Shown here: positions 5,143 to 19,248 of the stretch, in pieces
How the letters are laid out: each line of letters begins with the position of its first letter
How positions within the stretch are numbered: the stretch's first letter is position 1
Source: Brucella haematophila
GTDB taxonomy: Bacteria > Pseudomonadota > Alphaproteobacteria > Rhizobiales > Rhizobiaceae
Assembly: GCF_005938105.1 (NCBI RefSeq)
Contig: NZ_VCPE01000002.1
Location: 474,480-538,479, forward strand
DNA: 64,000 bases
Direction: 5' to 3'
The notes under the pieces: model-generated
The model's database searches: none
Seen by the model: the letters and a program-made list of their open reading frames with translations, nothing else
What the model was told of the DNA's origin: nothing
Position numbers and translations under genes: made by a program

Positions 5143-6682
5143 TGGCCGTACACTTTTCGAATCCGTTAATTTCAGCGTAGCCGAAGGCCGTATCGGGTTT
5201 GTCGGACGCAACGGCGTGGGTAAATCCACGATTCTCAACATCATGAGCGGTGCCTTGGCGCCAACATCAGGCACTGTTGCGCGCAGTGGCAGGCTCGGTG
5301 TTTTGCAACAGAACGTTCCCAATAACGGTGGGCAGACCCTGGCTGATCTGTTTGATCTGTCAGTTGCATTCGCCATGCTTTCGCGTATTGAAGCCGGGCA
5401 GGGTTCGGATAGCGACTTCGAACAAGCCGACTGGCTTCTGCCGCAGCGCTTTATCGACGCCTTGCAGCGTTTTGGACTGGCGTTTGAACCGCAGAGACGC
5501 CTTGCGTCGCTCAGCGGTGGGCAGAGGACTCGTGCGGCATTGGCCGCCCTGATATTCCATCAGCCCGATCTCATTCTGCTGGATGAACCGACCAACAATC
5601 TCGATCGTGATGGCCGAGAGGCGGTGATGGACATGCTGGCGGATTGGCGCGGGGCGGCAATTGTCGTCAGTCATGATCGCGCTTTGTTGCGCCAGATGGA
5701 CAGCATTGCCGAGCTTTCGCGAGGCGGCCTTCATCTTTATGGCGGCAACTGGGACTTCTATCACGACAGAAAGCAGGAAGAGCGGGACAATGCGGCCCGT
5801 AATCTGCAGCTTGCCCAGCGCGAAATGAAACAGGTTCAACGTAAGGCGCAGGAAGCAGTGGAACGTCAGACGCGCAGAGATGCGCGTGGGGCCAAATCAC
5901 GAGCCGATGCCGGTATGAGCAAACTGCTGCTCGATGCGCGCGAGGATCGAGCGCAGAAGACCGGCGGCAAGGGACAAGTGCTTGCGGATCGCAATGCGGA
6001 GAAGGCGCAGGCCCAACTGAAAGAGGCCGAGGCACTGGTCGAAACGATCAAGCCTATGCATTTCAGCGTCGAGGGCGCGGCTCTGCCATCTGGTCGTGTT
6101 CTTCTTGAAATGGAAGGCGTATCGGGTGGGCCGCTATCAGACCAGCCGGTCATCCGGGATTTTTCGATGAAGATTGTCGGACCAGAGCGCATCGCGATAT
6201 GTGGTGCCAATGGTGCGGGTAAGACATCGCTGCTGCGGCTTGTTACGGGAGAATTGCTGCCGATTGCCGGGCGTGTGCAATGTTTCGTGCCCATCGCCAT
6301 GTTCGACCAGCAGATGAATCTGATGGATCGCGAAGCCACACTTTATGAGAACTTCCGCCGTCTCAACCCGGATGCGAATGACAATGATGCGCGCGCGGCG
6401 CTGGCGCGTTTCTCATTTCGTGGTGAAGGCGCGAGCCGGTTAGCAGGAGAGCTGAGCGGTGGCGAATTGCTGCGCGCGGCGCTTGCTTGCGTTTTGGGGG
6501 GTACACAGAAGCCGGAATTGCTGATTCTGGATGAGCCAACCAATCACCTCGATCTCGATTCCATTGAGGCGCTGGAAGCTGCGTTGAACGACTATGAAGG
6601 CGGCTTACTTGTTGTCAGCCACGATCAGGCGTTTCTCGACGCCGTCGGAATGGAACGGGTGATTGATCTATCTGTCCAGTGA
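5096..6682 (+). CDS. ABC-F family ATP-binding protein
   Basis: Soluble protein with two ATPase domains and no membrane segment; ABC-F proteins act on ribosomes as translation factors or give antibiotic protection. Domain 1 has Walker A GRNGVGKST, signature LSGGQRTR and Walker B LILLDEPTNNLD. A charged, coiled linker rich in Arg, Lys and Ala follows. Domain 2 has GANGAGKTS, LSGGELLR and LLILDEPTNHLD. With the start at ATG 5096 (MTALLTLQDVS) it has 528 residues; the frame is open back to GTG 5069. Which ABC-F subgroup it belongs to (Uup, YheS, EttA or other) cannot be fixed by eye. A short upstream ORF with a strong ribosome-binding site overlaps its start. Confidence 0.88.
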   Translation: MTALLTLQDVSCITADGRTLFESVNFSVAEGRIGFVGRNGVGKSTILNIMSGALAPTSGTVARSGRLGVLQQNVPNNGGQTLADLFDLSVAFAMLSRIEAGQGSDSDFEQADWLLPQRFIDALQRFGLAFEPQRRLASLSGGQRTRAALAALIFHQPDLILLDEPTNNLDRDGREAVMDMLADWRGAAIVVSHDRALLRQMDSIAELSRGGLHLYGGNWDFYHDRKQEERDNAARNLQLAQREMKQVQRKAQEAVERQTRRDARGAKSRADAGMSKLLLDAREDRAQKTGGKGQVLADRNAEKAQAQLKEAEALVETIKPMHFSVEGAALPSGRVLLEMEGVSGGPLSDQPVIRDFSMKIVGPERIAICGANGAGKTSLLRLVTGELLPIAGRVQCFVPIAMFDQQMNLMDREATLYENFRRLNPDANDNDARAALARFSFRGEGASRLAGELSGGELLRAALACVLGGTQKPELLILDEPTNHLDLDSIEALEAALNDYEGGLLVVSHDQAFLDAVGMERVIDLSVQ

Positions 6683-6820
6683 ACTTTCAAATCGGCGTGC
6701 ATGATTTGCAGGCTGGTGGCCCTGTTCAATTCGACAGCAGATATTCTTGCAAAATTTGGGGGGAATTTTGAAGTTGTCCTTCGGGCCAAACCGCCGAAAG
6801 ACCAAGGGGATAGAATAAGA

Positions 6821-7528
6821 TTAGAGAAGACCGAAAGTGCGGGCCTTAGCGACGGCCTGAACTTTATTTACGGCAACAAGCTTGGTTAGCACGTTGCTGA
6901 TATGGAAGTTGACTGTGCGGGTTGAAATATTGAGTATCGCGCCGATGATTTCTGAGGTCTTGCCCTCACTCGCCCAGTGCAGGATTTCCCTTTCACGCGC
7001 GGTGAGATTGACTTCCGAAACGCAGTTCATGGTCGGGACATCAAGATGTTCATACATCGACAGATGGAGCAGATTGGCCGAAATCTGCATCTGGCGGCGT
7101 AAGGTGGCTATTTCGCCCGAAGATAGGGGCGGCTCACTTCTAATAAAAGACAGCATGCCGAATACGCCTTGTGCGGCCCAGCAAGGTTGCGAGATGCCAA
7201 CCTTGAAGCCGAATTTCTGCGCGTCCTCCCAGATTTGCGGAGCATCCGCGAACAACTTTGCCGACCAAACCAGCGGCTCTATGCTATTCAATGCTTTACG
7301 AACAAGCGGATCTTCTTCCGCGTATTTCTTGGACGCATAGTGATCTGTCCATTCTTGCGGTAATGAACCGAAGCTGAGCCACTTTACCACGCCATTGAGC
7401 AGTGGAACGCGCATGATATAGGACACATGTGCGAACCCGCGCTGTTTGGCATAGCTATCTATGTGCTCCAGGAGCTGCCCAGCATCATCGGCGGATTGCA
7501 TGGATTCATAAATTTGTTCCCATTTCAT
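6821..7528 (-). CDS. LuxR-family regulator with autoinducer-binding domain
   Basis: Transcription regulator of 235 residues. The N-terminal two thirds match the acyl-homoserine-lactone-binding domain. The invariant residues of the TraR/LuxR pocket are present: the Trp and Tyr of EWTDHY, the Asp-Pro of EEDP and the Trp of PLVWS. The C-terminal GerE-type helix-turn-helix covers about residues 170-230 (LTAREREILHWASEGKTS, then TVNFHISNVLTKL), with the conserved Glu, Leu and Gly. No luxI synthase is in the window, so it is a solo here or works with a distant synthase. It stands at the edge of the AT-rich accessory block and points away from it. Brucella has BlxR/BabR and VjbR of the same family. 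I do not equate this gene with either. Confidence 0.88.
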   Translation of the reverse strand: MKWEQIYESMQSADDAGQLLEHIDSYAKQRGFAHVSYIMRVPLLNGVVKWLSFGSLPQEWTDHYASKKYAEEDPLVRKALNSIEPLVWSAKLFADAPQIWEDAQKFGFKVGISQPCWAAQGVFGMLSFIRSEPPLSSGEIATLRRQMQISANLLHLSMYEHLDVPTMNCVSEVNLTAREREILHWASEGKTSEIIGAILNISTRTVNFHISNVLTKLVAVNKVQAVAKARTFGLL

Positions 7529-8064
7529 TGCAGGTACCCAATAAGAATGTTTTGTTTATGCTCGCATGTGACATTTAGTAGGATATTGTGTTCAGTTTTA
7601 CTGAACCAATTCCATCATATTACTCTTATTTTTACAAGAATTTAATAGGTCTTATAACAATTTTAATTTATTTTTATATATATGAATTGAAAATAAAGCT
7701 AAATTAGAATAATATTTATTTGTATTGTCTAATAAATATATTATAATATTATTTAAATAATATTTCATTGACGAATGTTATTTGAAATATTCTGTTATAT
7801 TATAGGTGTTTATATAAAATTATCTTTGGATAGCGTATAAGTTTTATATATTGCGATAAAAATTAATTAATTACGCGTTGTTGCATGCTGGAGGTATATT
7901 TTATACTATAATATATATTAGAAGGATAATTCTGAGTCTCATTCTCTTTTCTCTGAAATATAGAAAATTTCACCATAAGATTGCTTCTTCTGGTGAAAAT
8001 AGAAATATTAATCCGTGCCGCCACAAGCAATGGCGGCACAAAGGCTGTCGAATGATCGTTGGAT
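7529..8064. other. Extremely AT-rich intergenic spacer without genes
   Basis: More than 500 bases dominated by A and T, with many short TATA and AATATT palindromes (for example around 7730-7790), in a GC-rich genome. No credible ORF or RNA gene is visible. It contains the promoter of the LuxR gene on the minus strand and the 3' flank of the Ig-like gene. Such tracts are typical binding regions for xenogeneic silencers (MucR or other nucleoid proteins in this group); that role is inference. Confidence 0.7.
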
Positions 8065-10839
8065 TTAAGCAGTAGTATCAAGTTCGATGTGATCGAGTAT
8101 ATTCGACCAAGTGTCACCGATATAATATTCGGCCTCCAAAGTCCCATGATCGTAACCCATGAATTGCTCATGGGTGAAGTGAATGGGGATATCGTTCTTT
8201 GAGTCGTAATCGACCTTCGCGATTACCCCTTGACCAACATACGTGCCACCGAAACTGCCATCGTGATTGTTCATATACAGTATCAGATTGATGGTTTTAC
8301 CAATGGCTCCACTCCACCAATCCGCATAGGGGATAAGGACGTTGATTCCGTGGCCAATGCCATTGACGGTAATAATAGTGGCGTTGCCGTCAAACTTGGG
8401 CGCGGGTAGTACTCGACCGGGTTTGTTGTAGTCAGGATGGTTTTGTAATGTCGGACCAGACACGTCAGGGGAAAGTGTTCTACACATGTTAGTAACGCTG
8501 GATTGCGCATATACAGTCATATAGGCCAGCTTGTTGCGATTCGCGGAACCGTCTGACGGATCTGGAGTCAGGTAGGTATAAGGGATAATTACACCATCAC
8601 TAGCTTCTGACAGTAGTGCGATTCTTATATGTTCCTGTGGTGCTTTGTTTGGTGGATAGCTTGCAACCCAGAACACGATCCTATCCTCTGGCGGCAAGAA
8701 GTTCGCTTCCGGAACTGATAGGCTGAAACCCGGATTGTCGATCGAGTAGTGGTCTGGGATAGTGATGGGGTTTGGGTCAGAACGGATAGGCTTAATGTTC
8801 TCGCTAATATCTCCGGTGTCGAATGTTGCTATGACAAACTGTGCTTCATGAGCCCCGATAAAGGGGTCATCCTCGGGTCCGACCGAGGCTATGCCCATAA
8901 ATCGGAATTTGCTTCCAATCTTGAGAACACTGCGCCCATCGGGACCGGTTGTCGTAAAAACTTGTCCCTGCTTATTGACTGAGAGAGATTGGTACTGATC
9001 GTTGAAGTGGCCTAGACCGTACACATTTGGCGTGACGTTCCAGATTATTGTTTTGTCAGCTTGGGGTTTTCCATTACGAATGTAGAGATAGGTTAGGGTC
9101 ACAATCTGACTATCATCCCGCGGATCGATCTCATTGTCTGACGGGGGGTTATGGGCATAGTTCTTATCGAACAACAAAGAGACGTTTGGCGTATTCTGTT
9201 CGGCGATGAATGTCAGCGGGACGATCGTGGGAACGCAATTGCTCGCTTCCGAGATGGATAGAGACGTGACGAGTGGCGAGAATGAACTAACCCAAATCGT
9301 TGCGATACCGTATCTATCGGTTACAGGATAAAAATCACTCACGGTAATCAGGTTATTCGGGGCGACAATGAGCTTGCGACCGACTAGAGGATTCCCATTG
9401 TAGTCCTTGAGGGACATTTTTAGGGCAGTCGTTGCTCTGGTCGGTAATGGGTCGTTTACGGTAGGCGAAACCTGGGTTACGACGTTCGCGGTTACCTTAT
9501 AGACGGCGTTATAGGGTGCTCCGATTGATGGAGTGATGGTAACACTAAAGTTTTGCACGGTCCCTTGCGGAATGTCGACAAAGTTAACTGCACTTATCGC
9601 TAAGCCATTTTCATTCAGATTAGTTAGTGTTGGCAGAAAATATGCCGTACCGTCTCCTTTAATCGAGCCTTCCCAGGCAACAGAGAAGCCTTTTGGTGCA
9701 TTACCGTTCTCATCATGTATGATCACGTTGAACTGGCAGCTTTTCGCGGCTTCATAGATCGTGTCATCTGGCTGCGGACTGATAGAAGCAAAACGAGGCC
9801 CCCCCAGTTTAAAGACCGGGTAGTCTTGTTTGTACATTGGGTCGTCTTCCTCTCCGACGCTGCCCCCAGTCACATCCAGCCTAACTTCGTCACCCTGCCC
9901 ATATGCAACGTATTTACAAATGATTGTCGTCGTTGCTATGCCATCGTCATTGGTCAAACTGCTGGCCGGGGAAAGCTGTGCAATGTTATCCGCGAATGCA
10001 GCATTCGAAGCGGCCCAAGAGATTTTCCAATCGCGGTACACGTCACCGTGTCCCCTAACGGTGAAAAATGCCTTTAATGGGTAGGCAAACCCGGGCTGCA
10101 GCACCGAACCATTAGGCGGCCAGAAATTTGCAACATAGGTTGCACCGTAACTTCCGGGTTTCAGGAAGCATGTTGATTGAAATTCTGCGAACCCGTTGGA
10201 GTAATTATGAATGTCAAGTTCACAGTCATCGCGGTGGGTTGGTAATGTTACCAACGTTAAAAGACTATCTGTGGTTTGCACATTTATTTGATTGTCATTA
10301 GTCGGCGGTTTAGAAGTGAAAGTATTCACCACAGTCTTTCCAGAAAGAGGGTTTCCTGTTCCGTCGACACATAGAACGCGCAAATTTAAATCCCCTCCAT
10401 AAAGCTCGGTGTAAATCGGCCAAAGCCCATTTGGGTCGTTCTGGGGGTAAATTGTCTGTAAAATGTTGTCTTTACTGATCGGCGGCGCAGCCTTTGGTGC
10501 ACCGAACAGGCAGGTGAACTCGAGTCTTGAATCAGCTTCATCTTCTGGCCAGACAGCCAGACGAACCGACGCATTTGCGTTGGGATCTTCAAGATTTACC
10601 TGGATGCAATTAACGCCGTCACCTTTGCTATCAACGGACGTCGTCTCATGGCGCAGCGTGGCTTCGCCTTCGACAAGCTGCCAAATGAGCTTTTTCCCGA
10701 CCATTGGCTGGTGAAAGCTATCCTTGTATGCAATGGCAAGATCGACGAATTCATTCACCGGAAATGCAAAACCGGAAGTCGGTGTGCTGGCCATGTAGTG
10801 CAGATTATTATTGTTTTGAGTGAGAATGAACTGTCTCAT
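8065..10839 (-). CDS. Uncharacterised multi-domain Ig-like-repeat protein
   Basis: A 924-residue protein of unknown function. The start at 10839 (MRQFILTQNNNN) is chosen because AGGAGAG lies just before it; the frame is open to 10863. Several segments follow the pattern of bacterial Ig-like (Big_1/invasin-type) modules: a loop G-x-P/Q-x-x-G/D-K, a Trp or Val strand, then a D/N-G-x-A/G turn. Examples are QPMVGKKLIWQL, GNPLSGKTVVNTF, NAPKGFSVAWEG, GNPLVGRKLIVAPN and GKPQADKTIIWNV. The last ~110 residues form a different, aromatic-rich beta domain (VLIPYADWW ... GTLEAEYYIGDTW). I see no signal peptide, lipobox, membrane helix or sorting motif. It is downstream of, and probably co-transcribed with, the 398-residue gene. 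Codon use is more AT-rich than in flanking genes, suggesting transfer. Confidence 0.75.
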   Translation of the reverse strand: MRQFILTQNNNNLHYMASTPTSGFAFPVNEFVDLAIAYKDSFHQPMVGKKLIWQLVEGEATLRHETTSVDSKGDGVNCIQVNLEDPNANASVRLAVWPEDEADSRLEFTCLFGAPKAAPPISKDNILQTIYPQNDPNGLWPIYTELYGGDLNLRVLCVDGTGNPLSGKTVVNTFTSKPPTNDNQINVQTTDSLLTLVTLPTHRDDCELDIHNYSNGFAEFQSTCFLKPGSYGATYVANFWPPNGSVLQPGFAYPLKAFFTVRGHGDVYRDWKISWAASNAAFADNIAQLSPASSLTNDDGIATTTIICKYVAYGQGDEVRLDVTGGSVGEEDDPMYKQDYPVFKLGGPRFASISPQPDDTIYEAAKSCQFNVIIHDENGNAPKGFSVAWEGSIKGDGTAYFLPTLTNLNENGLAISAVNFVDIPQGTVQNFSVTITPSIGAPYNAVYKVTANVVTQVSPTVNDPLPTRATTALKMSLKDYNGNPLVGRKLIVAPNNLITVSDFYPVTDRYGIATIWVSSFSPLVTSLSISEASNCVPTIVPLTFIAEQNTPNVSLLFDKNYAHNPPSDNEIDPRDDSQIVTLTYLYIRNGKPQADKTIIWNVTPNVYGLGHFNDQYQSLSVNKQGQVFTTTGPDGRSVLKIGSKFRFMGIASVGPEDDPFIGAHEAQFVIATFDTGDISENIKPIRSDPNPITIPDHYSIDNPGFSLSVPEANFLPPEDRIVFWVASYPPNKAPQEHIRIALLSEASDGVIIPYTYLTPDPSDGSANRNKLAYMTVYAQSSVTNMCRTLSPDVSGPTLQNHPDYNKPGRVLPAPKFDGNATIITVNGIGHGINVLIPYADWWSGAIGKTINLILYMNNHDGSFGGTYVGQGVIAKVDYDSKNDIPIHFTHEQFMGYDHGTLEAEYYIGDTWSNILDHIELDTTA

Positions 10840-11233
10840 CCTGCTCTCCTGATTTTTAAACAAACGGGAAAACTTGCCAGCTCCACCCGAACTGGCAATT
10901 CAATTGGTTGTCGAGCGTTCTATGGCTTTTGCCGAAGGTGCCTTTGTTTTCATTCATGGCAACGAATGGCACACTGATCTTTGTCGACCGGAGCTAAGAT
11001 CAAGAGCAGGTAGGCGATCCAATTCAACCCGATTGGATTTTGCTTTCCAGCACACGAAGTGAGTTTGAGATGCGCCCCTTTTTGGACGCAATGCTCATCA
11101 GATGTGTCTGTAGGATTATGATAGCTCGCTCGTTGTGGGGGCAGAAAATCCGCCTGATCGGAGAACCTCTTTACGTATGCATGTTCCTATCCGTGCAGGC
11201 AGCTTCGGGCAGGATAAATGATCGCTCTGAAGG
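10840..11233. other. Spacer between the two Ig-like genes, with a hairpin
   Basis: About 390 bases with no convincing gene on either strand. On the minus strand a 7-bp stem (TTGCCAG/CTGGCAA, 10874-10898) lies about 35 bases before the downstream start, followed by GTTTTCCC. It resembles a weak terminator or attenuator. The spacing is long for a simple operon, so the downstream gene may also have its own promoter. Confidence 0.5.
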
Positions 11234-12430
11234 TTATTCGCTATCGTCTGGGGCTGGGCCGACAGTGTTGAGAGATCCGTGATCCCAGTTTTGAGGCTTG
11301 GCAACGAAATTACCAGCGGCGTCCAACAAATTATAGTCGATGTAGAAAACACCGGCCTCGTAGCCCTGGTCTTCACCGCTGATACCATAATCTGCGAGAT
11401 CTTTCGCTTGTATGGTCATCTTATACTTCTGTGCAACGGTGTTCGCTGGAATTTTTGGACTAACTATGCTTAAACGGTTTTGATGTTTCGCGTCGGTGCC
11501 CTGGTAGTAACCGTCCAGGGTAACGAGCAATTGGATCGCGCAGTTTGCCTCAAATGGGCCACTCGGTATGATCGGCAGATCGATATACACATCCGTATCT
11601 CTGGCTGGCGCATTGATATAATGCACATTATTAAACAGAGAAGGATCAGAGCCGATAATGGTGCGATGCGGTGACTGCCCCGGCTTGTCGGTACTGGAGT
11701 TGACTACACCCAAGGTGAGCGGAAGTGCCGTTTCGCCGTTAATTGCGTTAAAGAGCATATAGGTGAAGGTGTTTTCTACGGCGTGATCATCATCCTGGCC
11801 CGCCTTCAGATATGTGGTAGGAACCTGAAAGCCTTCATCCAAGACGTTGTGGACTGTGTCAATCACACAACGTGAGGGGACGCCGGTTCTGCTGATCACC
11901 AGGGCAGCTGTTGCACCCGGTACCGGATCATAGCTTTCATTAACCGACAGAGGCAGGTGGAAGGTAATAGTGTCTCGGTCCAGGGACACCGGAATGTTGT
12001 TCTTATCATCCAGGAAGGTCGTAAGCGGACCATAGATATCGTCCGCTTTGGCAGGGTCTACCCAGGCAACGAATTTGGGTAGGTTGGCTGGTTGGGTGCT
12101 CTGGTCAGTACCAATGTAGATACTGGGAGTTACGATGGCTTGTGCGTCCGACCAGATGTAGAATGTCAGCGTGCCCTGGGGGTTCGTTTTCACTTTATAG
12201 CCGAGTTTCTGGCTGCCCGGCACAGCAGCTCCCTGAGCGTCCAGAACTTGAACCAGATCCGTATCAACGCGCACCGTGATGTCAACTGACGGAACTACTG
12301 CGCCGGTTGCGCTGCCGTCGCGGGTCTGTAGGTTGAATTTGATGACCCCCGATGTGTTATCCATGGGCTTGGTCGAGTCTGCCGGCGTCGCTAAAATATT
12401 CACGGCGTCGAGTTTGATTATAGTAGCCAT
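11234..12430 (-). CDS. Uncharacterised Ig-like/beta-rich protein, partner of the 924-residue gene
   Basis: A 398-residue protein of unknown function. The start at 12430 (MATIIKLDAVNIL) has AAGGTAAA upstream. The first ~140 residues look like one Ig-like module (GAVVPSVDITVRVDTD ... KTNPQGTLTFYIWSD). The middle has a PGATAALVISR segment and an AVENTFTYMLF segment. The C-terminal ~120 residues (VYIDLPIIPSGPFE ... YEAGVFYIDYNL) resemble in rhythm and length the C-terminal domain of the neighbouring 924-residue protein, suggesting related end domains. No signal peptide or membrane helix is visible. Both genes run leftwards from an AT-rich promoter region shared, back to back, with the autotransporter. 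Base composition is more AT-rich than in the chromosomal flanks. Confidence 0.7.
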   Translation of the reverse strand: MATIIKLDAVNILATPADSTKPMDNTSGVIKFNLQTRDGSATGAVVPSVDITVRVDTDLVQVLDAQGAAVPGSQKLGYKVKTNPQGTLTFYIWSDAQAIVTPSIYIGTDQSTQPANLPKFVAWVDPAKADDIYGPLTTFLDDKNNIPVSLDRDTITFHLPLSVNESYDPVPGATAALVISRTGVPSRCVIDTVHNVLDEGFQVPTTYLKAGQDDDHAVENTFTYMLFNAINGETALPLTLGVVNSSTDKPGQSPHRTIIGSDPSLFNNVHYINAPARDTDVYIDLPIIPSGPFEANCAIQLLVTLDGYYQGTDAKHQNRLSIVSPKIPANTVAQKYKMTIQAKDLADYGISGEDQGYEAGVFYIDYNLLDAAGNFVAKPQNWDHGSLNTVGPAPDDSE

Positions 12431-12868
12431 TGAATTTACCTTATGTTTGACAATGCGCAACAACAATGGATTTTTATGCGCCCCTCAACAACTGTCGGGA
12501 CGGGCATGAAACTTGTTGATACTGCCAGTTGCGCGTGTATTAGGCCCATCCATGGATGTTGCTGATGGTGCGTTTGCGTAGCAGTTTTTGATTTCCAGAA
12601 CGCGTACCGTTCGGCATCACACGATGCTTCAATCATCTTTTGGCAGCCTGTTGGTCAATCGCCAAAAGGGTATTTTAAAATATACTCTAATTATTTCTGA
12701 ATATATAAACAAATAAATGCTAATTTAAATATCATAAATATGTAAATTATTCGCTGACCGAAATCAATACGTGTAATTCTACCAAATAAAGAATGGTGTT
12801 TTCTTATTACTTTAATTGATATAAAGGAAGAGGGGATTATCCATCAATTTATAATTAGAGATTGCTAA
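12431..12868. other. AT-rich divergent promoter region
   Basis: Lies between the leftward Ig-like pair and the rightward autotransporter. Bases 12660-12860 are strongly AT-rich (TATATAAACAAATAAATGC and similar). No gene is visible. It must hold the promoters for both directions, a natural place for shared regulation; no specific operator could be recognised. Confidence 0.6.
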
Positions 12869-15800
12869 ATGATACTACTTCTGCGCACTCGGCGTTCAAC
12901 GGGCGTGACTTTCAGTGCTATATTTCACCGAAAGAAACGGAACCTTCGTGCTGGCGTCGCACTGCCTGTCTCTCTTTTTTGGGGAGCATTGTTTGCGCTG
13001 CCGACCGTGCCTGCCTTTGCGCAAACAGTGGGGGGTGATGGCGGCACTCTCTATAACTATCCGGATACGATTGGCCAAGGCGGTGGACCAGGAGAGGATG
13101 GGGTGCCGGGGCACGTTCCCGCAGTTCAGAGTTTCCCGGGGCTTGGCGGTGGTGGTGGTGGTGCCGGAGGTGGAAAAGGGGCGGTTGGTGTCGTTGGAGA
13201 TCCCCAAGGCGTTACTAGCGCGATCGGCGGTAACGGCGGAGATGGTGGCGATCATGGTTATGTTGTCAGTACGGTGATCCCGGGCGGTTATACCAATACT
13301 CAGTCGTGGAGTGGAACGTCTGGCACACGAGGACAGGACGGGACGGATTCGCAGGTTGTCGGGAAGTCGGCTGGCGGTGGTGGTGGTGGTGGCGCTGGCG
13401 GTTATGGCCTGGTAATCAGTAAGGGGCAGCCCGTCACCAATCAGGCAGCGCTTAACGGCGGTGATGGCGGTGATGGCGGTGATGGCGGGGTGGATACAAA
13501 CCCAACCGCCACATCATACGTCTTTTCAGGAGCTGCCGGCAGTGGCGGCGGCGGCGGCATCGGGCTTTGGATGGATGACGATAATGTGTCCGTAATCAAT
13601 GCGAGCACGATTACTGGCGGAGCTGGGGGAAAGGGCGGAGACACCAAGGCTCATAGTTATGCCGTTGGCACAACCGGCAATGGCGGCGCCGGGGGGGCTG
13701 GCATCTATGGCGCCGAGGATGATGGGTCGGGCAATGATGTCGCGCGGCCTGGCTCAACGGTTGTGAATCAGGCGGCCGGCGTCATCACTGGCGGAAAAGG
13801 TGGTGCTGGCGGGAATACGGATACAGCACAGCTTGTGTCAGGACTTTGGCTCGCCGATATTATAGGAGCCAACGGGGGTGCGGGTGGTGCTGGGATTTAT
13901 GGTGTCTTCAGTGTGGATAATCAGGGCGGTGTCATCACGGGTGGTGACGGCGCTAACGGCGGTGTGGGCAGCCAAGACACAGGTGTCCAAAATGGTCAAA
14001 CACGTGAGGCAGCAGGTGGAGATGGCGGCGCAGGTGTTTTCCTGGTTCTCCATGATGACGGGTCTGTGGCGACGGTCGACAACGCCGGCGCGATCACTGG
14101 CGGCAATGGAGGAAATGGAGGTGATGCCAAAACGACCGGAGCAATTGCCAAAGATCAGAGTGTTGGAGGGCATGGCGGCGCTGGCATTCAGGGGGATACA
14201 GGCGGTACTATTACCAATACTGGTAGTATCCACGGCGGCAACGGTGGCAATGGTGGCCATACGGCCGCGACAGGCGAGAATGACGGCGATGGCGGTGCTG
14301 CCGGTGATGGTATTTCGGGCACCAATCTGACGGTCATCAATAGCGGCATGATTGCGCCGGGCATCGCGGGCAGCGCTGGCAGCGGTCAGAAAGGGGTCGG
14401 TGGTTATGCGATCCGTATGGAAGGCGGTCAGAGCACTCTGGAGCTTCATGCAGGTTCGGACATTCAGGGGAATGTTTTCGCCGACGAATTGGTAGATGCA
14501 GATACCGGAACCAGCACAGACAGCAATATTTTCATTCTCGGTGGAGCGACGTCCAGTAAATTCGACAAAACGCTTTCCATGGGCAGAGACGGCACTGCTC
14601 AATATGAAGGCTTCTCAACCTTCATAAAAAATGGCGCGAGTACGTGGACGCTTGAAAACACCTATAATTTAAACTGGCAGATTCGCGGCGGTGTGCTGGA
14701 AATCGATGACCAGGGTGCTTTGGGCAGCGGCGTCACCATTGATACCGGTGATGGCGCCAGTAAAGGGTTCTTATCCTATAACCAGAACGGGACTACGCCG
14801 ACAACATTCGGTGGCACGATTATCGGTGACGGCGGTCTTCGCAAGGAAGGCACTGGCGAACTTGTGCTGACGGGCAACAATTCCTACAGCGGCGGCACCG
14901 AATTGAACGGGGGTGTGATTTCGGTGGATGACGACACTCGCCTCGGGAATCAGACCGGTGTTTTGAACTTCAACGGCGGAACACTGAAGATAATGGGCAC
15001 GTCGATGACATCGACGGATCACGCCATTACCTGGGGCAATAACGGTGGTGGTTTCGACATTGATAGTGTCGACAACACTTTTACCATTACAACTGATCTC
15101 GCCGGAAGTGGCTCACTGATCAAAGACGGCGCTGGAACGCTCGCTATGACGGGCCTGGATAGCTACGCCGGTATCGTGGCGATCAAGGGTGGCGTGTTGC
15201 AGATCGGCGATGGCCAGACGAGCGGAACATTGGGCACGGGGGCTTCTGTTGCGATTACCAGCGGTACATTGGCCTTCAATAGAAGTGACGATGTCCTTGT
15301 AATTAGCCAGGTGATTAGCGGCAATGGCGGTCTTGTGCAGGCGGGCGCCGGAACGACGACCCTAGTGGGCGACAACTCTTACCTCGGTGACACTGACATC
15401 CAGGCAGGGACTCTTCAGCTGGGTCAAAACGGAACGACGGGCGCACTGGATCCCAGAAGCACCATCCATATCTCAGCCAACGCAAAATTGGTCATCAGTC
15501 GCAGTGACATCGCCAGCCCCTTTAGTTTCGACAACTTGATCAACGGTGATGGCCAGGTCGTGATTAACGGGGATGGTCGAGTTACACTCACCAACACGGG
15601 TAGCAGCTACACTGGCGGCACAAAGCTCGATGATGGTACACTTATCATCGGTTCCGACATGGTTCTCGGTTCTGGTGATCTGACATTGAACGGCGGCACG
15701 TTGCGGGTGGAATCTCCATTTACAATGAACCGTGCCATCAATGTTCTGGCCCCGAACGGCAGGGTCAACATGCTCGATACAGCTCAGAACTTGACGTTCT

Positions 15801-18800
15801 CCGGAACCTTGACGGGGAGTAATGCCTCAAGCTTTACCAAAATAGGCGCTGGTGATCTATGGTTCGATCAAGCGGCAACTGCGACGGGCTTTACAGGTAC
15901 TGCCAACGTCGATGAAGGCGCTATGCGGGTTAGCAGCACGTTCGGCGGCAAGGTCAATGTCAACAGCGGCGGCGTGCTTGGCGGTACTGGTACGGTTGGC
16001 GACACGCATATTTCCGCTGGTGGAACGTTGGCCGGACTTTACGGCACGACGCTAAAGATCGAGGGGGGGCTGACGGTCGACAGAGATAGCGCCGTTCAAG
16101 TCAATATCGGCACATTGCCGTTCTCTACGGGTATGTTCAACGTTACCGGAAATCTTACACTCAAGGGAAAACTTGACGTTACCACTAGTGGAGTCGCAGC
16201 TCCTGGAATATATCGCATTTTTGACTATGATTCCAGTAAAACGAACGACTATGCCGATTTCACATTGGGTACGGTAGATGACGTTGCCGTTAGTTCCGAT
16301 GACTGGAATATTGAGAAGACGAATCCTGGCCAGATCAACCTCGTCAATATGCAGGGAATGACGTTTGTTATTTGGGATGGCCAAAATATGGTTGATAGCA
16401 ATCAAGTCCATGGCGGCGACGGAACCTGGAATGCTGCGGACACAAATTGGAAAGATTATGGGAGTCAATCGATCAATGGCAAATGGACGGATGGTTCCGT
16501 TGCTGTTTTCACGACAACCCCGGGAACCGTAAACATTGATAATCATGCGGCCGGTGTAAATGCATCGGGCTTGGTGTTTGAGACAAATGGCTACAAGATC
16601 ACCGGTGATCCCATCACACTCGTTCAGGGCGAGAATGCAACAGCACCGTTTATACAGGTCGGGGTGAACAATAGGGCGGATGATATACCGACGGCCACAA
16701 TAGGCACGGTTTTGCACGGAGCAAACGGTCTAACGAAGACCGGTAACGGCACTTTGATTTTGACAAAAAATGCCGATTATTCCGGTTCTACGATTGTATC
16801 AGCGGGCACGCTCCAATTGGGAGATGGCGGTACTTTGGGGGCGGTTAGTACGAATATAGAGCTGAAGGATGATGTCTTCGGTCATGGTACTTTGGTGTTC
16901 GACCGCTCGGACAACAGCAATGTCTTCAATCATCAGATTACTGGCGGCGGTGATGTTATCCAGCGCGGTACGGGGATAACTATTCTCTCTGGAAACAATA
17001 GTTTTACTGGCGGTCTGACCATCGAGCACGGTATCGTCCAGGCTGGCATTGCAGATACCGCATTCAGCGCGGGTCGCGTGAGGATTGAGAAAGATGGCAC
17101 GCTTGATCTTCAGACATTCAATGAAACCATCGGCGGTTTGGTTGGGAGCGACGATGGCAATGGCAAAATCGCACTTGGCGGCGGAACTCTGACGCTCAAT
17201 CAGGACTTCAGCGACAGATTTTCCGGTGACATTTCGGGAACCGGCGGTCTTTGGAAAAATGGGACGGGTACTCTGACGCTTTCGGGCCAGAACGAGTATT
17301 CGGGTCTTACAACTGTCAATGTTGGCTCTCTCGTACAAGGCGCTCAGGGGGCTTTCAGTGATGCATCCGCTTACACTGTTGTTAACGGCGCGACGCTCGA
17401 TCTGGGCGGCTTTGAAACCAAGATGCAGTCATTGAAGAATGGCGGCACAGTCAATTTCGGCGGCGCTGGCGGTATCCATCTGAATATCGCTGGAGACTAT
17501 GCCGGTAACGGCGGCACGCTCGTGATGAACACCGAGTTGGGCGACGATAACTCCAATACGGACAGGATGAGCGTCGCTGGCAATACATCAGGGAACACGA
17601 CCGTAGTGGTTAAAAACCGTGGCGGTCTCGGTGCTCAGACGGTGAATGGTATCGAACTGATCGATGTTAGCGGTAGCTCTGATGGTACATTCAATCTTCA
17701 AGGGGATTACACCACCAAGGATGGTCAGCAAGCCATTCTGACATCGTCGGCCTATGCCTATACCCTACAAAAGGGGAGTGCGAGCGGTTCGAATGACGGT
17801 GATTGGTATTTGGTTAGCCAAAATACGCGAAGCACTCCTGATGGTCCGTCGCCGGATTGTGACGATCCGAATGGTTGCTCTAACAATCCAGACACGCCTT
17901 CACGGTTCAGCCCGGCAGCTCCGGTTTACACGTCCTATGCTGCTAGCATGCAGGCACTGAACCAGTTGCCGACATTGCAGCAGCGCCGCGGCGACCGTTA
18001 CTTCGCCAAGAAGACATCGGCTCTCCGCGGTTCTTCGTCCGACGCTGGCGAGACGGATGATCGCGCCATTTGGGCACGTATCGAAGGTGCGCATAATCGT
18101 TTGGAACCGAACACGACTGCCGGGCGTGTTCAGCAGGATGTCAACACTGTCATCATGCAGGCAGGTGTCGATGGACAGTTCTACGAGGATGAGAATGGTC
18201 GATTGATTGCAGGCATTACCGGCCAATACGGAAATGGCCGCGCCAAAACGTCCAGCGAATTCGATGACTCCCTTGGCGGCGGTCAGTTGAACACGCAGGG
18301 CTGGGGTCTGGGTGGAACGATCACCTGGTATGGCAATGACGGCTTTTATGTCGATGGACAGGCTCAGGCCACCTGGTACAAGACCGATCTCAGCTTTGGT
18401 GGTGGCAACAAAGGGCTGTCGAATGACAATAACGGCTTCGGCTATGCGCTCAGCATGGAAAGCGGAAAGCGTTTCGATCTCGATGAGCATTGGTCGCTGA
18501 CGCCGCAGGCACAACTGATGTTCTCGTCAGTCGATTTCGATACGTTCTCGGATAGCTATGGTGCCACTGTCAGCAACCGTGATGGCAACAGCCTCAACGG
18601 TCGTCTTGGTCTTGCCGCCAACTATGCCGATAGCTGGCAAGGAGCGGATGGTCGCGCAGTGAACGCCAATGTCTATGGCATCGCCAACCTCTATCAGGAG
18701 TTCCTCGGCGGTACGAGCATCAACTATGGCGGAACTCGGATGAAGGCTGATCAGGATCGCACTTGGGCGGGCGTCGGTTTCGGTGGCACCTATGCGTGGT

Positions 18801-18910
18801 CGGACGATAAGTATTCGATCTACGGTGAGGGCACGCTCAACACTTCGCTCACGCACTTTGCAGATAGCTATGCCGTCAAAGGCAATGTGGGCTTCCGGGT
18901 GAACTGGTAA
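12869..18910 (+). CDS. Large autotransporter adhesin (type Va secretion)
   Basis: A 2013-residue surface protein. The N-terminus is an extended, basic signal peptide (FHRKKRNLRAG then a hydrophobic core) with a cleavage site after AFA at residue 51. Residues about 55-550 are Gly-rich low-complexity repeats (GGNGGNGGD, VITGGDGANGG). From about 648 to 1490 there are at least seven autotransporter-associated beta-strand (PATR) repeats of the form GSGSLIKDGAGTLAMTG with LQIGDG. A Pro/Asp/Asn linker near 1665 precedes the C-terminal beta-barrel, which begins about 1731 (RAIWARIEGAHN) and ends in the aromatic FRVNW. The first half should form a beta-helix passenger. In Brucella an adhesin gene of this class (bmaC) lies, as I recall, near otpR on chromosome I, so this may be its positional counterpart; it is much shorter than B. 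suis BmaC. Only a weak ribosome-binding site precedes ATG 12869. Confidence 0.9.
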   Translation: MILLLRTRRSTGVTFSAIFHRKKRNLRAGVALPVSLFWGALFALPTVPAFAQTVGGDGGTLYNYPDTIGQGGGPGEDGVPGHVPAVQSFPGLGGGGGGAGGGKGAVGVVGDPQGVTSAIGGNGGDGGDHGYVVSTVIPGGYTNTQSWSGTSGTRGQDGTDSQVVGKSAGGGGGGGAGGYGLVISKGQPVTNQAALNGGDGGDGGDGGVDTNPTATSYVFSGAAGSGGGGGIGLWMDDDNVSVINASTITGGAGGKGGDTKAHSYAVGTTGNGGAGGAGIYGAEDDGSGNDVARPGSTVVNQAAGVITGGKGGAGGNTDTAQLVSGLWLADIIGANGGAGGAGIYGVFSVDNQGGVITGGDGANGGVGSQDTGVQNGQTREAAGGDGGAGVFLVLHDDGSVATVDNAGAITGGNGGNGGDAKTTGAIAKDQSVGGHGGAGIQGDTGGTITNTGSIHGGNGGNGGHTAATGENDGDGGAAGDGISGTNLTVINSGMIAPGIAGSAGSGQKGVGGYAIRMEGGQSTLELHAGSDIQGNVFADELVDADTGTSTDSNIFILGGATSSKFDKTLSMGRDGTAQYEGFSTFIKNGASTWTLENTYNLNWQIRGGVLEIDDQGALGSGVTIDTGDGASKGFLSYNQNGTTPTTFGGTIIGDGGLRKEGTGELVLTGNNSYSGGTELNGGVISVDDDTRLGNQTGVLNFNGGTLKIMGTSMTSTDHAITWGNNGGGFDIDSVDNTFTITTDLAGSGSLIKDGAGTLAMTGLDSYAGIVAIKGGVLQIGDGQTSGTLGTGASVAITSGTLAFNRSDDVLVISQVISGNGGLVQAGAGTTTLVGDNSYLGDTDIQAGTLQLGQNGTTGALDPRSTIHISANAKLVISRSDIASPFSFDNLINGDGQVVINGDGRVTLTNTGSSYTGGTKLDDGTLIIGSDMVLGSGDLTLNGGTLRVESPFTMNRAINVLAPNGRVNMLDTAQNLTFSGTLTGSNASSFTKIGAGDLWFDQAATATGFTGTANVDEGAMRVSSTFGGKVNVNSGGVLGGTGTVGDTHISAGGTLAGLYGTTLKIEGGLTVDRDSAVQVNIGTLPFSTGMFNVTGNLTLKGKLDVTTSGVAAPGIYRIFDYDSSKTNDYADFTLGTVDDVAVSSDDWNIEKTNPGQINLVNMQGMTFVIWDGQNMVDSNQVHGGDGTWNAADTNWKDYGSQSINGKWTDGSVAVFTTTPGTVNIDNHAAGVNASGLVFETNGYKITGDPITLVQGENATAPFIQVGVNNRADDIPTATIGTVLHGANGLTKTGNGTLILTKNADYSGSTIVSAGTLQLGDGGTLGAVSTNIELKDDVFGHGTLVFDRSDNSNVFNHQITGGGDVIQRGTGITILSGNNSFTGGLTIEHGIVQAGIADTAFSAGRVRIEKDGTLDLQTFNETIGGLVGSDDGNGKIALGGGTLTLNQDFSDRFSGDISGTGGLWKNGTGTLTLSGQNEYSGLTTVNVGSLVQGAQGAFSDASAYTVVNGATLDLGGFETKMQSLKNGGTVNFGGAGGIHLNIAGDYAGNGGTLVMNTELGDDNSNTDRMSVAGNTSGNTTVVVKNRGGLGAQTVNGIELIDVSGSSDGTFNLQGDYTTKDGQQAILTSSAYAYTLQKGSASGSNDGDWYLVSQNTRSTPDGPSPDCDDPNGCSNNPDTPSRFSPAAPVYTSYAASMQALNQLPTLQQRRGDRYFAKKTSALRGSSSDAGETDDRAIWARIEGAHNRLEPNTTAGRVQQDVNTVIMQAGVDGQFYEDENGRLIAGITGQYGNGRAKTSSEFDDSLGGGQLNTQGWGLGGTITWYGNDGFYVDGQAQATWYKTDLSFGGGNKGLSNDNNGFGYALSMESGKRFDLDEHWSLTPQAQLMFSSVDFDTFSDSYGATVSNRDGNSLNGRLGLAANYADSWQGADGRAVNANVYGIANLYQEFLGGTSINYGGTRMKADQDRTWAGVGFGGTYAWSDDKYSIYGEGTLNTSLTHFADSYAVKGNVGFRVNW

Positions 18911-18916
18911 AATCGC

Positions 18917-18960
18917 TGCGGATCTGGGAAGGGCCCGTTATCGGGTTCTTCCCACCGCAG
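18917..18960 (+). terminator. Hairpin after the autotransporter gene
   Basis: A long two-part stem: CTGCGG/CCGCAG outside and GGGAAGGGCCCG against CGGGTTCTTCCC inside. It lies 7 bases after the stop. There is no T-run, so it may protect the mRNA end or act with Rho. Confidence 0.55.
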
Positions 18961-19184
18961 TAGTTTGATACTGATATGAGTAGTGATCTCTGTTTTTGGG
19001 CATCATGTGAGTGCCAACTGGATGGGCACGGCGGATGCTGTCAAATATCAGCGGTCTGTAGAGCTTGAGACAAACTTTACTCAAGAGCATTCCCGGCAAA
19101 AATCGGGAGTGCCTCGGCAGAGAAAATAGCCGATGGTCTGATGTAGTCCGTCGACGATCGAGCGAACGGACTGGAAGCGAACAA

Positions 19185-19219
19185 AAATCGCCGATCTGAT
19201 CCCATCAGGTCGGCGATTT
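19185..19219 (-). terminator. Rho-independent terminator of the cenR/otpR-CNB unit
   Basis: On the minus strand, a near-perfect 16-bp stem (AAATCGCCGACCTGAT against ATCAGATCGGCGATTT) is followed by TTTTTGTT. Confidence 0.8.
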
Positions 19220-19248
19220 CCTTTCTTGGGTAAAATTTCCGGTAGAAA

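What the first reader, a model, noticed from the sequence alone, without database searches (positions are those of the whole stretch)
6821..18910. Accessory block: LuxR-type regulator, Ig-like protein pair and giant autotransporter
Seen: four genes of lower GC content, separated by very AT-rich spacers (7529-8064, 12660-12868), set between ordinary chromosomal genes (an ABC-F gene and the cenR/otpR pair). Two genes encode Ig-like-repeat proteins of unknown role; they are divergent from a 2013-residue autotransporter across one promoter region, and a regulator with an intact AHL pocket stands at the edge. Inference: this may be one surface-interaction module under quorum control or xenogeneic silencing. 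The divergent layout allows the Ig-like proteins and the adhesin to be made together.
Basis: partly seen in the sequence, partly recalled or inferred. Interest (0 to 1): 0.75.

Follow-up and report, generated by a model that had tools for sequence, protein, structure and literature searches.

The report
Autotransporter with signal-less Ig-like partners
A 12.6-kb inserted block joins a giant surface protein to two Ig-like proteins that show no export signal; distant relatives of those Ig-like proteins lie near the same general kind of surface protein in other bacteria, which suggests an undescribed family of partner proteins.

Summary
LuxR, big Ig, small Ig and autotransporter (AT) genes fill window 6670-19248. 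In a close relative the flanking matches lie 14 bp apart, so the block is an insertion: four genomes carry it here, 19 have the site empty. The small Ig protein is a stand-alone copy of the big one's C-terminal module (C-module). Neither shows a signal peptide by hydropathy. The C-module occurs in 12 of 35 genomes of the genus, at 13 loci; 12 have an AT-like gene within 6.5 kb, and the other is cut by a contig end. Relatives on Enterobacterales plasmids lie in clusters with inverse autotransporters; on three Salmonella plasmids the gene starts 11 nt after one and is followed by a LuxR-type gene. Two gamma loci also carry holin and lysozyme genes. The window LuxR is a second copy of a gene found in all 35 genomes and stands beside the C-module only at this site. 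Known partners of inverse autotransporters, ZirS and SinI, have signal regions; SinI is not detectably related. Best reading: a fast-diverging AT plus non-Sec partner cassette for surface interaction. The export route is unproven; no structure was obtained because the queue stayed full.

The parts
6670..19248 (.). inserted block (12.6 kb) between the convergent ABC-F and otpR-like genes; edges are ends of DNA matches
   Evidence: Empty site in relative G030: window 3253-6669 matches L133 3770-7186 at 90.6% and window 19249-24000 matches L133 7201-11951 at 95.5%; 14 bp lie between the two matches
6821..7528 (-). LuxR-type regulator with autoinducer-binding and GerE domains; extra copy, nearer to LuxR of other lineages than to the native copy
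   Evidence: Pfam; alignment to RhlR; identities and tree
7529..8064 (.). very AT-rich spacer (25.9% GC) upstream of the LuxR gene; inverted repeat 8015-8039 may be the terminator of the big Ig gene
8065..10839 (-). big Ig-like protein, 924 aa: N-cap, Big_1-type repeats, C-module; no signal peptide seen
8068..9195 (-). C-module of the big Ig-like protein (ends ELDTTA)
   Evidence: alignments A3 and A7
10465..10839 (-). N-cap of the big Ig-like protein (M-x-x-F-I-L-T-Q-x-N-N pattern)
   Evidence: alignment A4
11234..12430 (-). small Ig-like protein, 398 aa: stand-alone C-module, ends SLNTVGP plus tail; no signal peptide seen
12431..12868 (.). divergent region between small Ig gene and AT (36.1% GC)
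12869..18910 (+). autotransporter, 2013 aa: signal region, Gly-rich and PATR passenger, AC_1 autochaperone (1519-1614), beta-barrel (TIGR01414, 1534-2013)

Best explanation
The block is a horizontally acquired, fast-diverging autotransporter-plus-partner cassette. Shown: it is an insertion; the Ig-like C-module belongs to a family whose members show no signal peptide by hydropathy and, in the genus, lie close to a classical AT gene at 12 of 13 loci, while relatives in Enterobacterales lie in clusters with inverse ATs; the block LuxR is a second copy, nearer to LuxR of other lineages of the genus than to the native copy. Inferred: the AT shows its passenger on the surface by the usual Sec and barrel route. 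The Ig-like proteins are made in the cytoplasm, leave the cell by a route other than Sec (perhaps lysis of some cells, as in type 10 secretion), and act with the AT passenger outside the cell as an adhesive or recognition complex, comparable in role to ZirS or SinI. The AT-rich promoters may be silenced by MucR, and the LuxR protein may tune the block.
For: Empty site and insertion. C-module in 12 of 35 genus genomes, 13 loci; AT-like gene within 6.5 kb at 12 of 13, eight of them 45-500 bp away. Homology to gamma proteins: A7 profile against Pantoea 6.6e-12 and S. bongori 3e-6, A5 against Y. enterocolitica 2.2e-7; the Enterobacter and S. enterica proteins match the Pantoea one by tblastn (1e-10; 3e-28 to 7e-20); alignment of five gamma proteins against A7, hhalign 97.1%, E 6.3e-11. 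An inverse AT lies in the same cluster in these 5 gamma lineages: 2 nt, 11 nt, 1.1 kb, 7 kb and 10.5 kb away. No strong hydrophobic stretch at the N-terminus in 25 of 25 family proteins scored (0.12-1.44), against 8 of 9 AT/IAT proteins that have one (1.72-2.89). Lysis genes near two gamma loci. Published: of the proteins highly enriched in the Y. entomophaga secretion released by T10SS, nearly all lack a signal sequence (PMC10847048, passages).
Against: The converse link is weak: only 3 of 39 AT loci scanned have a C-module gene. A7 does not match the Enterobacter, Y. enterocolitica or S. enterica proteins at E 1 or less; their membership rests on A5 or on the Pantoea protein. No lysis cassette was recognised in the ORF lists of the window block or of the genus loci, but these lists stop at 90-100 aa and no profiles were run. 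No binding between Ig-like protein and AT is shown. At G003 the AT lies on the same strand and at G019 it is 4.6-6.3 kb away on the same strand. A signal-less N-cap protein (L067) has no AT near. In 2 of the 4 same-site alleles the small gene is split into separate frames (G016, G024) and the G016 big protein lacks the last domain, so the partners are not always kept. Signal peptides were judged by a simple hydropathy score, whose gap between the two groups is narrow (1.44 against 1.72), and not by a trained predictor. No structure was obtained.
Confidence: 0.45

Rival explanations
1. The big Ig-like protein is a type 1 secreted repeat adhesin (SiiE/LapA-like): signal-less at the N-terminus, exported by an ABC exporter through a C-terminal signal; the AT next door is a separate adhesin.
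For: Giant tandem Big_1 repeats without signal peptide and a conserved C-terminus. A Big-type protein of 2642 aa on an E. coli plasmid that weakly matched the search (7e-3) lies next to a T1SS operon, but it does not match the C-module profiles.
Against: No T1SS genes were recognised by eye in the block or in the C-module loci read (not searched). The conserved C-terminus also exists as a stand-alone protein. Up to 1.27 Cys per 100 aa.
Confidence: 0.15
2. Coincidence of accessory genes: this site and AT genes in general are landing places for mobile accessory genes, and the Ig-like genes have no functional tie to the AT.
For: The site takes unrelated inserts: G028 has an RHS protein here. RHS or RHS-like genes also lie near other ATs (L197, L184). 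LuxR varies independently. Only 3 of 39 AT loci scanned have a C-module gene.
Against: 12 of 13 C-module loci have an AT-like gene within 6.5 kb; by my count these are up to 9 distinct sites, though whether the eight others besides this one are truly distinct was not tested. On Salmonella enterica plasmids the C-module gene starts 11 nt after an inverse AT gene and in S. bongori 2 nt after.
Confidence: 0.15
3. The signal-less Ig-like genes are orphan or decaying adhesin passengers, kept as cassettes for recombination or simply lost, and not working proteins.
For: Passenger-type proteins without visible signal and anchor occur near ATs in the genus: AC_1 protein L197:6272-7747 and YadA-head proteins L066:10285-11697 and L236:8637-10358. 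Small genes are split in G016 and G024. Same-site alleles are only 35.0-36.4% identical in the big C-module and 33.5% in the small protein.
Against: C-terminal motifs recur from alpha to gamma members, long frames are intact in most loci read, and in the window the AT passenger is not Ig-like, so no swapping is evident.
Confidence: 0.15

Closest known systems
ZirT/ZirS/ZirU of Salmonella enterica (PMC2270342, passages read; PMC6714894, one passage)
   Same: A type V (intimin-like) outer membrane protein with a separately encoded partner in the same locus; the partner is secreted in dependence on it.
   Different: ZirS has a Sec signal (cleavage between residues 24 and 25 predicted, secretion Sec-dependent, PMC2270342); ours show none. 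ZirT is intimin/inverse-AT-like; the window AT is classical. Homology to ZirS itself was not tested.
SinH/SinI (NCBIfam NF040711, SinI family autotransporter-associated protein)
   Same: Barrel-less protein encoded directly next to an inverse autotransporter.
   Different: SinI has a hydrophobic N-terminal stretch and no match to A7, A5 or A1 at E 10 or less; neither the window proteins nor the seven relatives scanned match NF040711, while SinI does at 2e-111.
BigA/BigB adhesion island of Brucella (PMC7697752, passages read)
   Same: Ig-like proteins in an accessory island in the same genus, with a helper gene, tied to adhesion.
   Different: BigA is itself an exposed outer membrane protein; here the Ig-like proteins show no signal and a separate AT is present. 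Sequences were not compared.
Type 10 secretion of signal-less proteins in Yersinia entomophaga (PMC10847048, PMC10101115, passages read)
   Same: Large proteins without signal sequence leave by holin/endolysin/spanin lysis; autoinducer-1 molecules are named among the controls of the producing subpopulation (PMC10847048, legend).
   Different: No lysis genes recognised at the window locus; only two gamma relatives have them nearby.
Intimin/invasin Big_1 repeats (Pfam PF02369)
   Same: Repeats of the big protein are Big_1-type.
   Different: No inverse-AT barrel found and no signal peptide seen on the Ig-like protein.

Membership tests
Classical autotransporter (type Va) | C-terminal barrel domain with autochaperone and beta-helix passenger | tested here: met
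   TIGR01414 1.9e-86, AC_1 1.1e-20 and PATR 8.4e-45. Pfam PF03797 itself did not score at E 1 or less.
Classical autotransporter (type Va) | N-terminal signal region | tested here: met
   Hydropathy peak 1.88 at residue 29, sequence; no trained predictor was used.
AHL-receptor LuxR proteins | Autoinducer-binding plus GerE domain with ligand pocket residues | tested here: met
   Pfam; alignment to RhlR (which residues line the pocket is recalled).
AHL-receptor LuxR proteins | Binds an AHL and controls the block | not testable with these tools
   Needs experiment. No lux-box search and no AHL-synthase search was made; only inverted repeats were listed.
SinI family autotransporter-associated protein (NF040711) | Match to family model | tested here: not met
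   No match at E 1 or less for the window proteins or seven relatives; SinI itself matches.
ZirS/SinI type partners | Sec signal peptide on the partner | tested here: not met
   Peak hydropathy 0.12-1.44 in 25 of 25 family proteins scored against 2.12 for SinI; crude score.
Type 10 secretion cargo | No signal peptide and a linked holin/endolysin/spanin cassette | tested here: inconclusive
   Signal-less by hydropathy: yes. Lysis genes: none recognised at the window (ORF list only, 100 aa and up); present at Pantoea and S. bongori.
T6SS cargo | T6SS in the host genome | tested here: not met
   VipB PF05943 in 3 of 35 genus genomes (G001, G006, G031); absent from 11 of the 12 C-module genomes, the exception being G006.
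T1SS repeat adhesins | RTX or C-terminal signal and linked ABC exporter | tested here: inconclusive
   No exporter genes recognised by eye in the block and no RTX family in the Pfam results; not searched further.
BigA/BigB | Sequence homology | not tested
   Their sequences were not fetched.

The most novel reading that the evidence does not exclude
A so far undescribed protein family, the C-module often ending in (L/I/V)(N/D)TVxP, forms two-part surface systems with type V adhesins of two architectures in two bacterial classes: signal-less partners are set free by lysis of some cells and captured by the AT on the surviving ones, in some loci under an AHL receptor encoded in the same cluster.
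Probability: 0.2. Interest if true: 0.82.

Novelty: new variant of a known kind. Interest (0 to 1): 0.62.

Why it matters
The separate autotransporter partners that I know of or met in the papers seen (ZirS, SinI) go with inverse autotransporters and carry Sec signals. A family without signal that goes with both classical and inverse autotransporters, across Alpha- and Gammaproteobacteria, would widen type V secretion from self-contained proteins to two-part systems and would pose a direct question: how do these proteins leave the cell? It would also give a testable role to proteins annotated only as 'Ig-like domain-containing' or 'hypothetical', whose C-module reached the cut-off of no Pfam or NCBIfam model in the members scanned.

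Tried and rejected
Led nowhere: structure prediction was asked for 24 times and each time answered 'busy', so there is no model and no fold search. PDB sequence searches gave nothing for the window's big protein, the N-cap or the G021 big protein, and only weak intimin matches (0.017) for the C-module. PHROGs had no match for the two window Ig-like proteins; the G016 big protein matched phrog_7803 of unknown function at 2.8e-11. The named-genome scan found three Ochrobactrum loci. Profiles gave nothing convincing in samples of the phylum (398 genomes each; the one hit outside the window genome, G467 at 1.4e-4, looks like an inverse autotransporter with Ig repeats), in 369 genomes of the class of G467 (14 hits at E 1 or less, best 0.0026) or in 396 other genomes of the order. 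Plasmid searches with the window Ig-like proteins themselves were empty; the gamma relatives came through neighbour genes at other genus loci and then through each other. Phages and E. coli genomes gave no match.

Considered and rejected: T6SS cargo; the E. coli CI5 plasmid hit as family member, because it does not match the profiles; Y. frederiksenii as confirmed member, because only a weak tblastn match (4e-4) supports it and A7 does not match, although a classical AT lies 0.9 kb beyond the next gene; an internal duplication D1/D2 within the C-module (hhalign E 0.32). No claim is made that the window LuxR and the Salmonella LuxR proteins share recent ancestry.
Full report
WHAT IS THERE. The window lies in G000, contig 12, bases 474480-538479, in a genome whose genus relatives include records titled Ochrobactrum. 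Between an ABC-F gene and the convergent otpR-like/cenR-like pair stand four genes: LuxR (6821-7528, minus), a 924-aa Ig-like protein (8065-10839, minus), a 398-aa Ig-like protein (11234-12430, minus) and a 2013-aa autotransporter (12869-18910, plus). ATG 10839 has AGGAG 6 nt upstream. GC is 51.1, 48.2, 51.8 and 55.0% for the four genes against 58.2% outside the block.

IT IS AN INSERTION. In relative G030 the matches to the two flanks of window 6670-19248 are 14 bp apart. The ABC-F gene was found in 24 of 35 genus genomes at E 1e-150 or less and the cenR-like gene in 33 of 35 at 1e-100 or less. From their coordinates, in 19 of the 24 the two genes lie 492-636 bp apart, so only the otpR-like gene fits between; three (G000, G016, G021) hold the block; in G024 the block is cut by contig ends; G028 holds another insert, 8.7 kb between the two genes, with a 1697-aa RHS protein. 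The other 11 genomes had no ABC-F match at that threshold; in three of the four of these that I read (G029, G023, G014) the otpR-like gene is next to another gene of the window's left flank, and in G032 no otpR-like gene was listed.

THE ALLELES DIFFER STRONGLY. Between the window and the same-site alleles, ABC-F is 86.9-90.3% identical (3 alleles), LuxR 96.2-97.0% (3), otpR-like 97.4-98.7% (3), cenR-like 100% (G021), AT barrel 86.2% and AT passenger 55.3% (G016). The C-module of the big protein is only 35.0-36.4% identical (3, that of G016 being cut short), the N-cap 42.6-73.9% (3), the small protein 33.5% (G021, the only other unsplit copy at this site). Big proteins are 924, 1141, 2035 and 2197 aa long. 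Small genes of G016 and G024 are split into separate frames.

THE TWO IG-LIKE PROTEINS. The big protein has an N-cap (M-x-x-F-I-L-T-Q-x-N-N), Big_1-type repeats and a C-module; the small one is a stand-alone C-module (hhalign 98.6%, E 1.1e-15). C-modules often end in a motif like LNTVGP. Neither protein has a strongly hydrophobic N-terminal stretch: the best 12-residue mean in the first 50 residues is 0.12-1.44 in 25 of 25 C-module or N-cap proteins scored, against 1.72-2.89 in 8 of 9 AT/IAT proteins (the ninth 0.95) and 2.12 in SinI. The window's small protein has the highest value of the 25, 1.44, so the gap is narrow. Left out of that count: the split small genes of G016 and G024, the G006 member (start unclear) and the S. 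diarizonae member L249 (near-identical to L245 at the ends seen). Starts were taken from annotation or chosen by eye.

LINK TO AUTOTRANSPORTERS IN THE GENUS. The A7 profile finds the C-module in 12 of 35 genus genomes, at 13 loci, and in none of the 396 other genomes of the order sample. At 12 of the 13 an AT-like gene lies within 6.5 kb: 45-500 bp at eight, 1.3 kb at G003, 1.9 kb at G007, 4.9 kb at G006 (where short glycine-rich frames that look like a broken AT start about 0.7 kb away) and 6.3 kb at G019 (a Gly-rich frame on the same strand starts 4.6 kb away). The thirteenth, G023:C6, begins 108 bp from a contig end and cannot be judged. Ten are divergent, G003 and G019 are not. The converse is weak: of 39 AT loci scanned after fetching by AT similarity, 3 had a C-module relative. 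A chance rate of a few percent per locus would follow from about ten AT genes per 5-Mb genome; this is my arithmetic, not a tool result.

LINK IN GAMMAPROTEOBACTERIA. A neighbour protein at G021:C43 and an RHS protein led to Enterobacterales plasmids. Enterobacter sp. CP057783 has a 341-aa protein (ends IDTVPPGKNC) divergent, 1.1 kb away, from a 1462-aa inverse AT (PF11924). Pantoea ananatis NZ_CP054911 has a 354-aa member (A7 6.6e-12) with an inverse AT 7 kb on, plus holin and Rz genes (Pfam) and amidase and lysozyme genes (annotation). Y. enterocolitica plasmids have a 535-aa member (A5 2.2e-7, ends in DTVPPGG plus tail) and RHS genes; YE165 has an inverse AT 10.5 kb away, in YE3 only a 392-aa Ig-like frame stands at that place. 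Three Salmonella enterica plasmids have an inverse AT, a C-module gene 11 nt later and a LuxR-type gene; Autoind_bind and GerE were found in the two LuxR proteins scanned. S. bongori NC_021871 has an inverse AT, a member 2 nt later (A7 3e-6, ends DIDTVAPGE), a holin gene (Pfam) and a lysozyme gene (annotation). A7 does not match the Enterobacter, Y. enterocolitica or S. enterica members at E 1 or less; Enterobacter and S. enterica are tied in by tblastn with the Pantoea protein (1e-10; 3e-28 to 7e-20). The alignment of five gamma proteins, Pantoea among them, matches A7 over 317 columns (97.1%, E 6.3e-11). One search matched 29 records; I read the surroundings of 7 (Pantoea, Enterobacter, three S. 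enterica, S. bongori, E. coli CI5), the last of which is not a family member. Most of the rest are Salmonella plasmids with the same identity as the Bareilly one, and Klebsiella AP023267 was not looked at. Y. frederiksenii came and is unconfirmed.

LUXR. All 35 genus genomes hold a relative (split in two frames in G028, with stops in G010; these two were left out of the tree). In the unrooted FastTree tree the block copies (window, G016, G021, G024) fall with the copies of G001, G006, G009, G012, G015, G017, G022, G023 and G029 (81-87% identical to the window copy), on the other side of a branch of support 0.998 from the native copies of the same genomes (69-70%). So the block LuxR is an extra copy, most simply from another lineage of the genus; this is an inference. 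It stands beside the C-module at 4 of 13 loci, all one site. That the native gene is babR is my guess. In Brucella, MucR silences babR and autotransporter genes and binds stretches of 74-83% AT (PMC10746212, passages read); the spacer 7529-8064 is 74% AT. This makes silencing plausible, not shown.

HOW IT MAY WORK. Shown: insertion, homology, linkage, no signal peptide by hydropathy. Inferred: export of the Ig-like proteins by a route other than Sec, and action with the AT outside the cell. T6SS is unlikely (VipB absent from 11 of 12 C-module genomes). Lysis-based release is suggested by two gamma loci and by the Y. entomophaga case (PMC10847048, PMC10101115, passages read), but no lysis genes were recognised at the window. 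Cysteine content (0.97 and 0.50 per 100 aa against 0.10 in the AT) leans towards folding in the cytoplasm, weakly; across the family it runs from 0 to 1.27, against 0.09-0.65 in the AT/IAT set.

COMPARISON. The nearest known kind is the separate partner of an inverse autotransporter: ZirS (PMC2270342, passages), SinI and the iatB neighbour (PMC6714894, one passage). The window proteins and seven relatives do not match NF040711, SinI does; SinI does not match A7. Not-in-print statement: searches of the held library listed 1, 11, 0, 12 of 20, 6 of 8,659 and 2 papers; by titles and starts of abstracts none of those listed describes a signal-less autotransporter partner family. Apart from PMC6714894 and two other papers of those listings (PMC7697752, PMC10746212), in which I read passages, they were not read, and most subscription journals are not held.

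Noticed in passing
L197:6272-7747 (G000:C12): 491-aa passenger-like protein with an AC_1 autochaperone domain but no visible signal peptide and no barrel, between an RHS gene and an AT in the window's own genome.
   Followed up: partly
L066:10285-11697 and L236:8637-10358: YadA-head proteins without visible signal or membrane anchor, next to C-module genes (G007, G019).
   Followed up: partly
L153:3413-8506, L184:3043-8484, L197:1153-6183: RHS or RHS-like proteins (L184 below Pfam's cut-off) without visible signal, near ATs or at the same insertion site; the L197 one has relatives on 87 plasmid records, in Y. enterocolitica together with Ig-like genes.
   Followed up: partly
L067:9929-12181 (G000:C12:156728 on): 750-aa N-cap plus Big_1 protein without C-module and without an AT in the 20 kb read, in the window's own genome.
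   Followed up: partly
L204:12815-14262 (G012): SapC-family protein and a second protein without visible signal, divergent from an AT.
   Followed up: no
L209:12001-16211 (G004): GoxA/LodA-like oxidase (below the curated cut-off) and an FAD-protein-like frame beside an AT and a C-module operon.
   Followed up: no
L154 (G026:C3): Tandem second ABC-F gene (55% identical to the window's; the first is 75%) next to the empty site.
   Followed up: no
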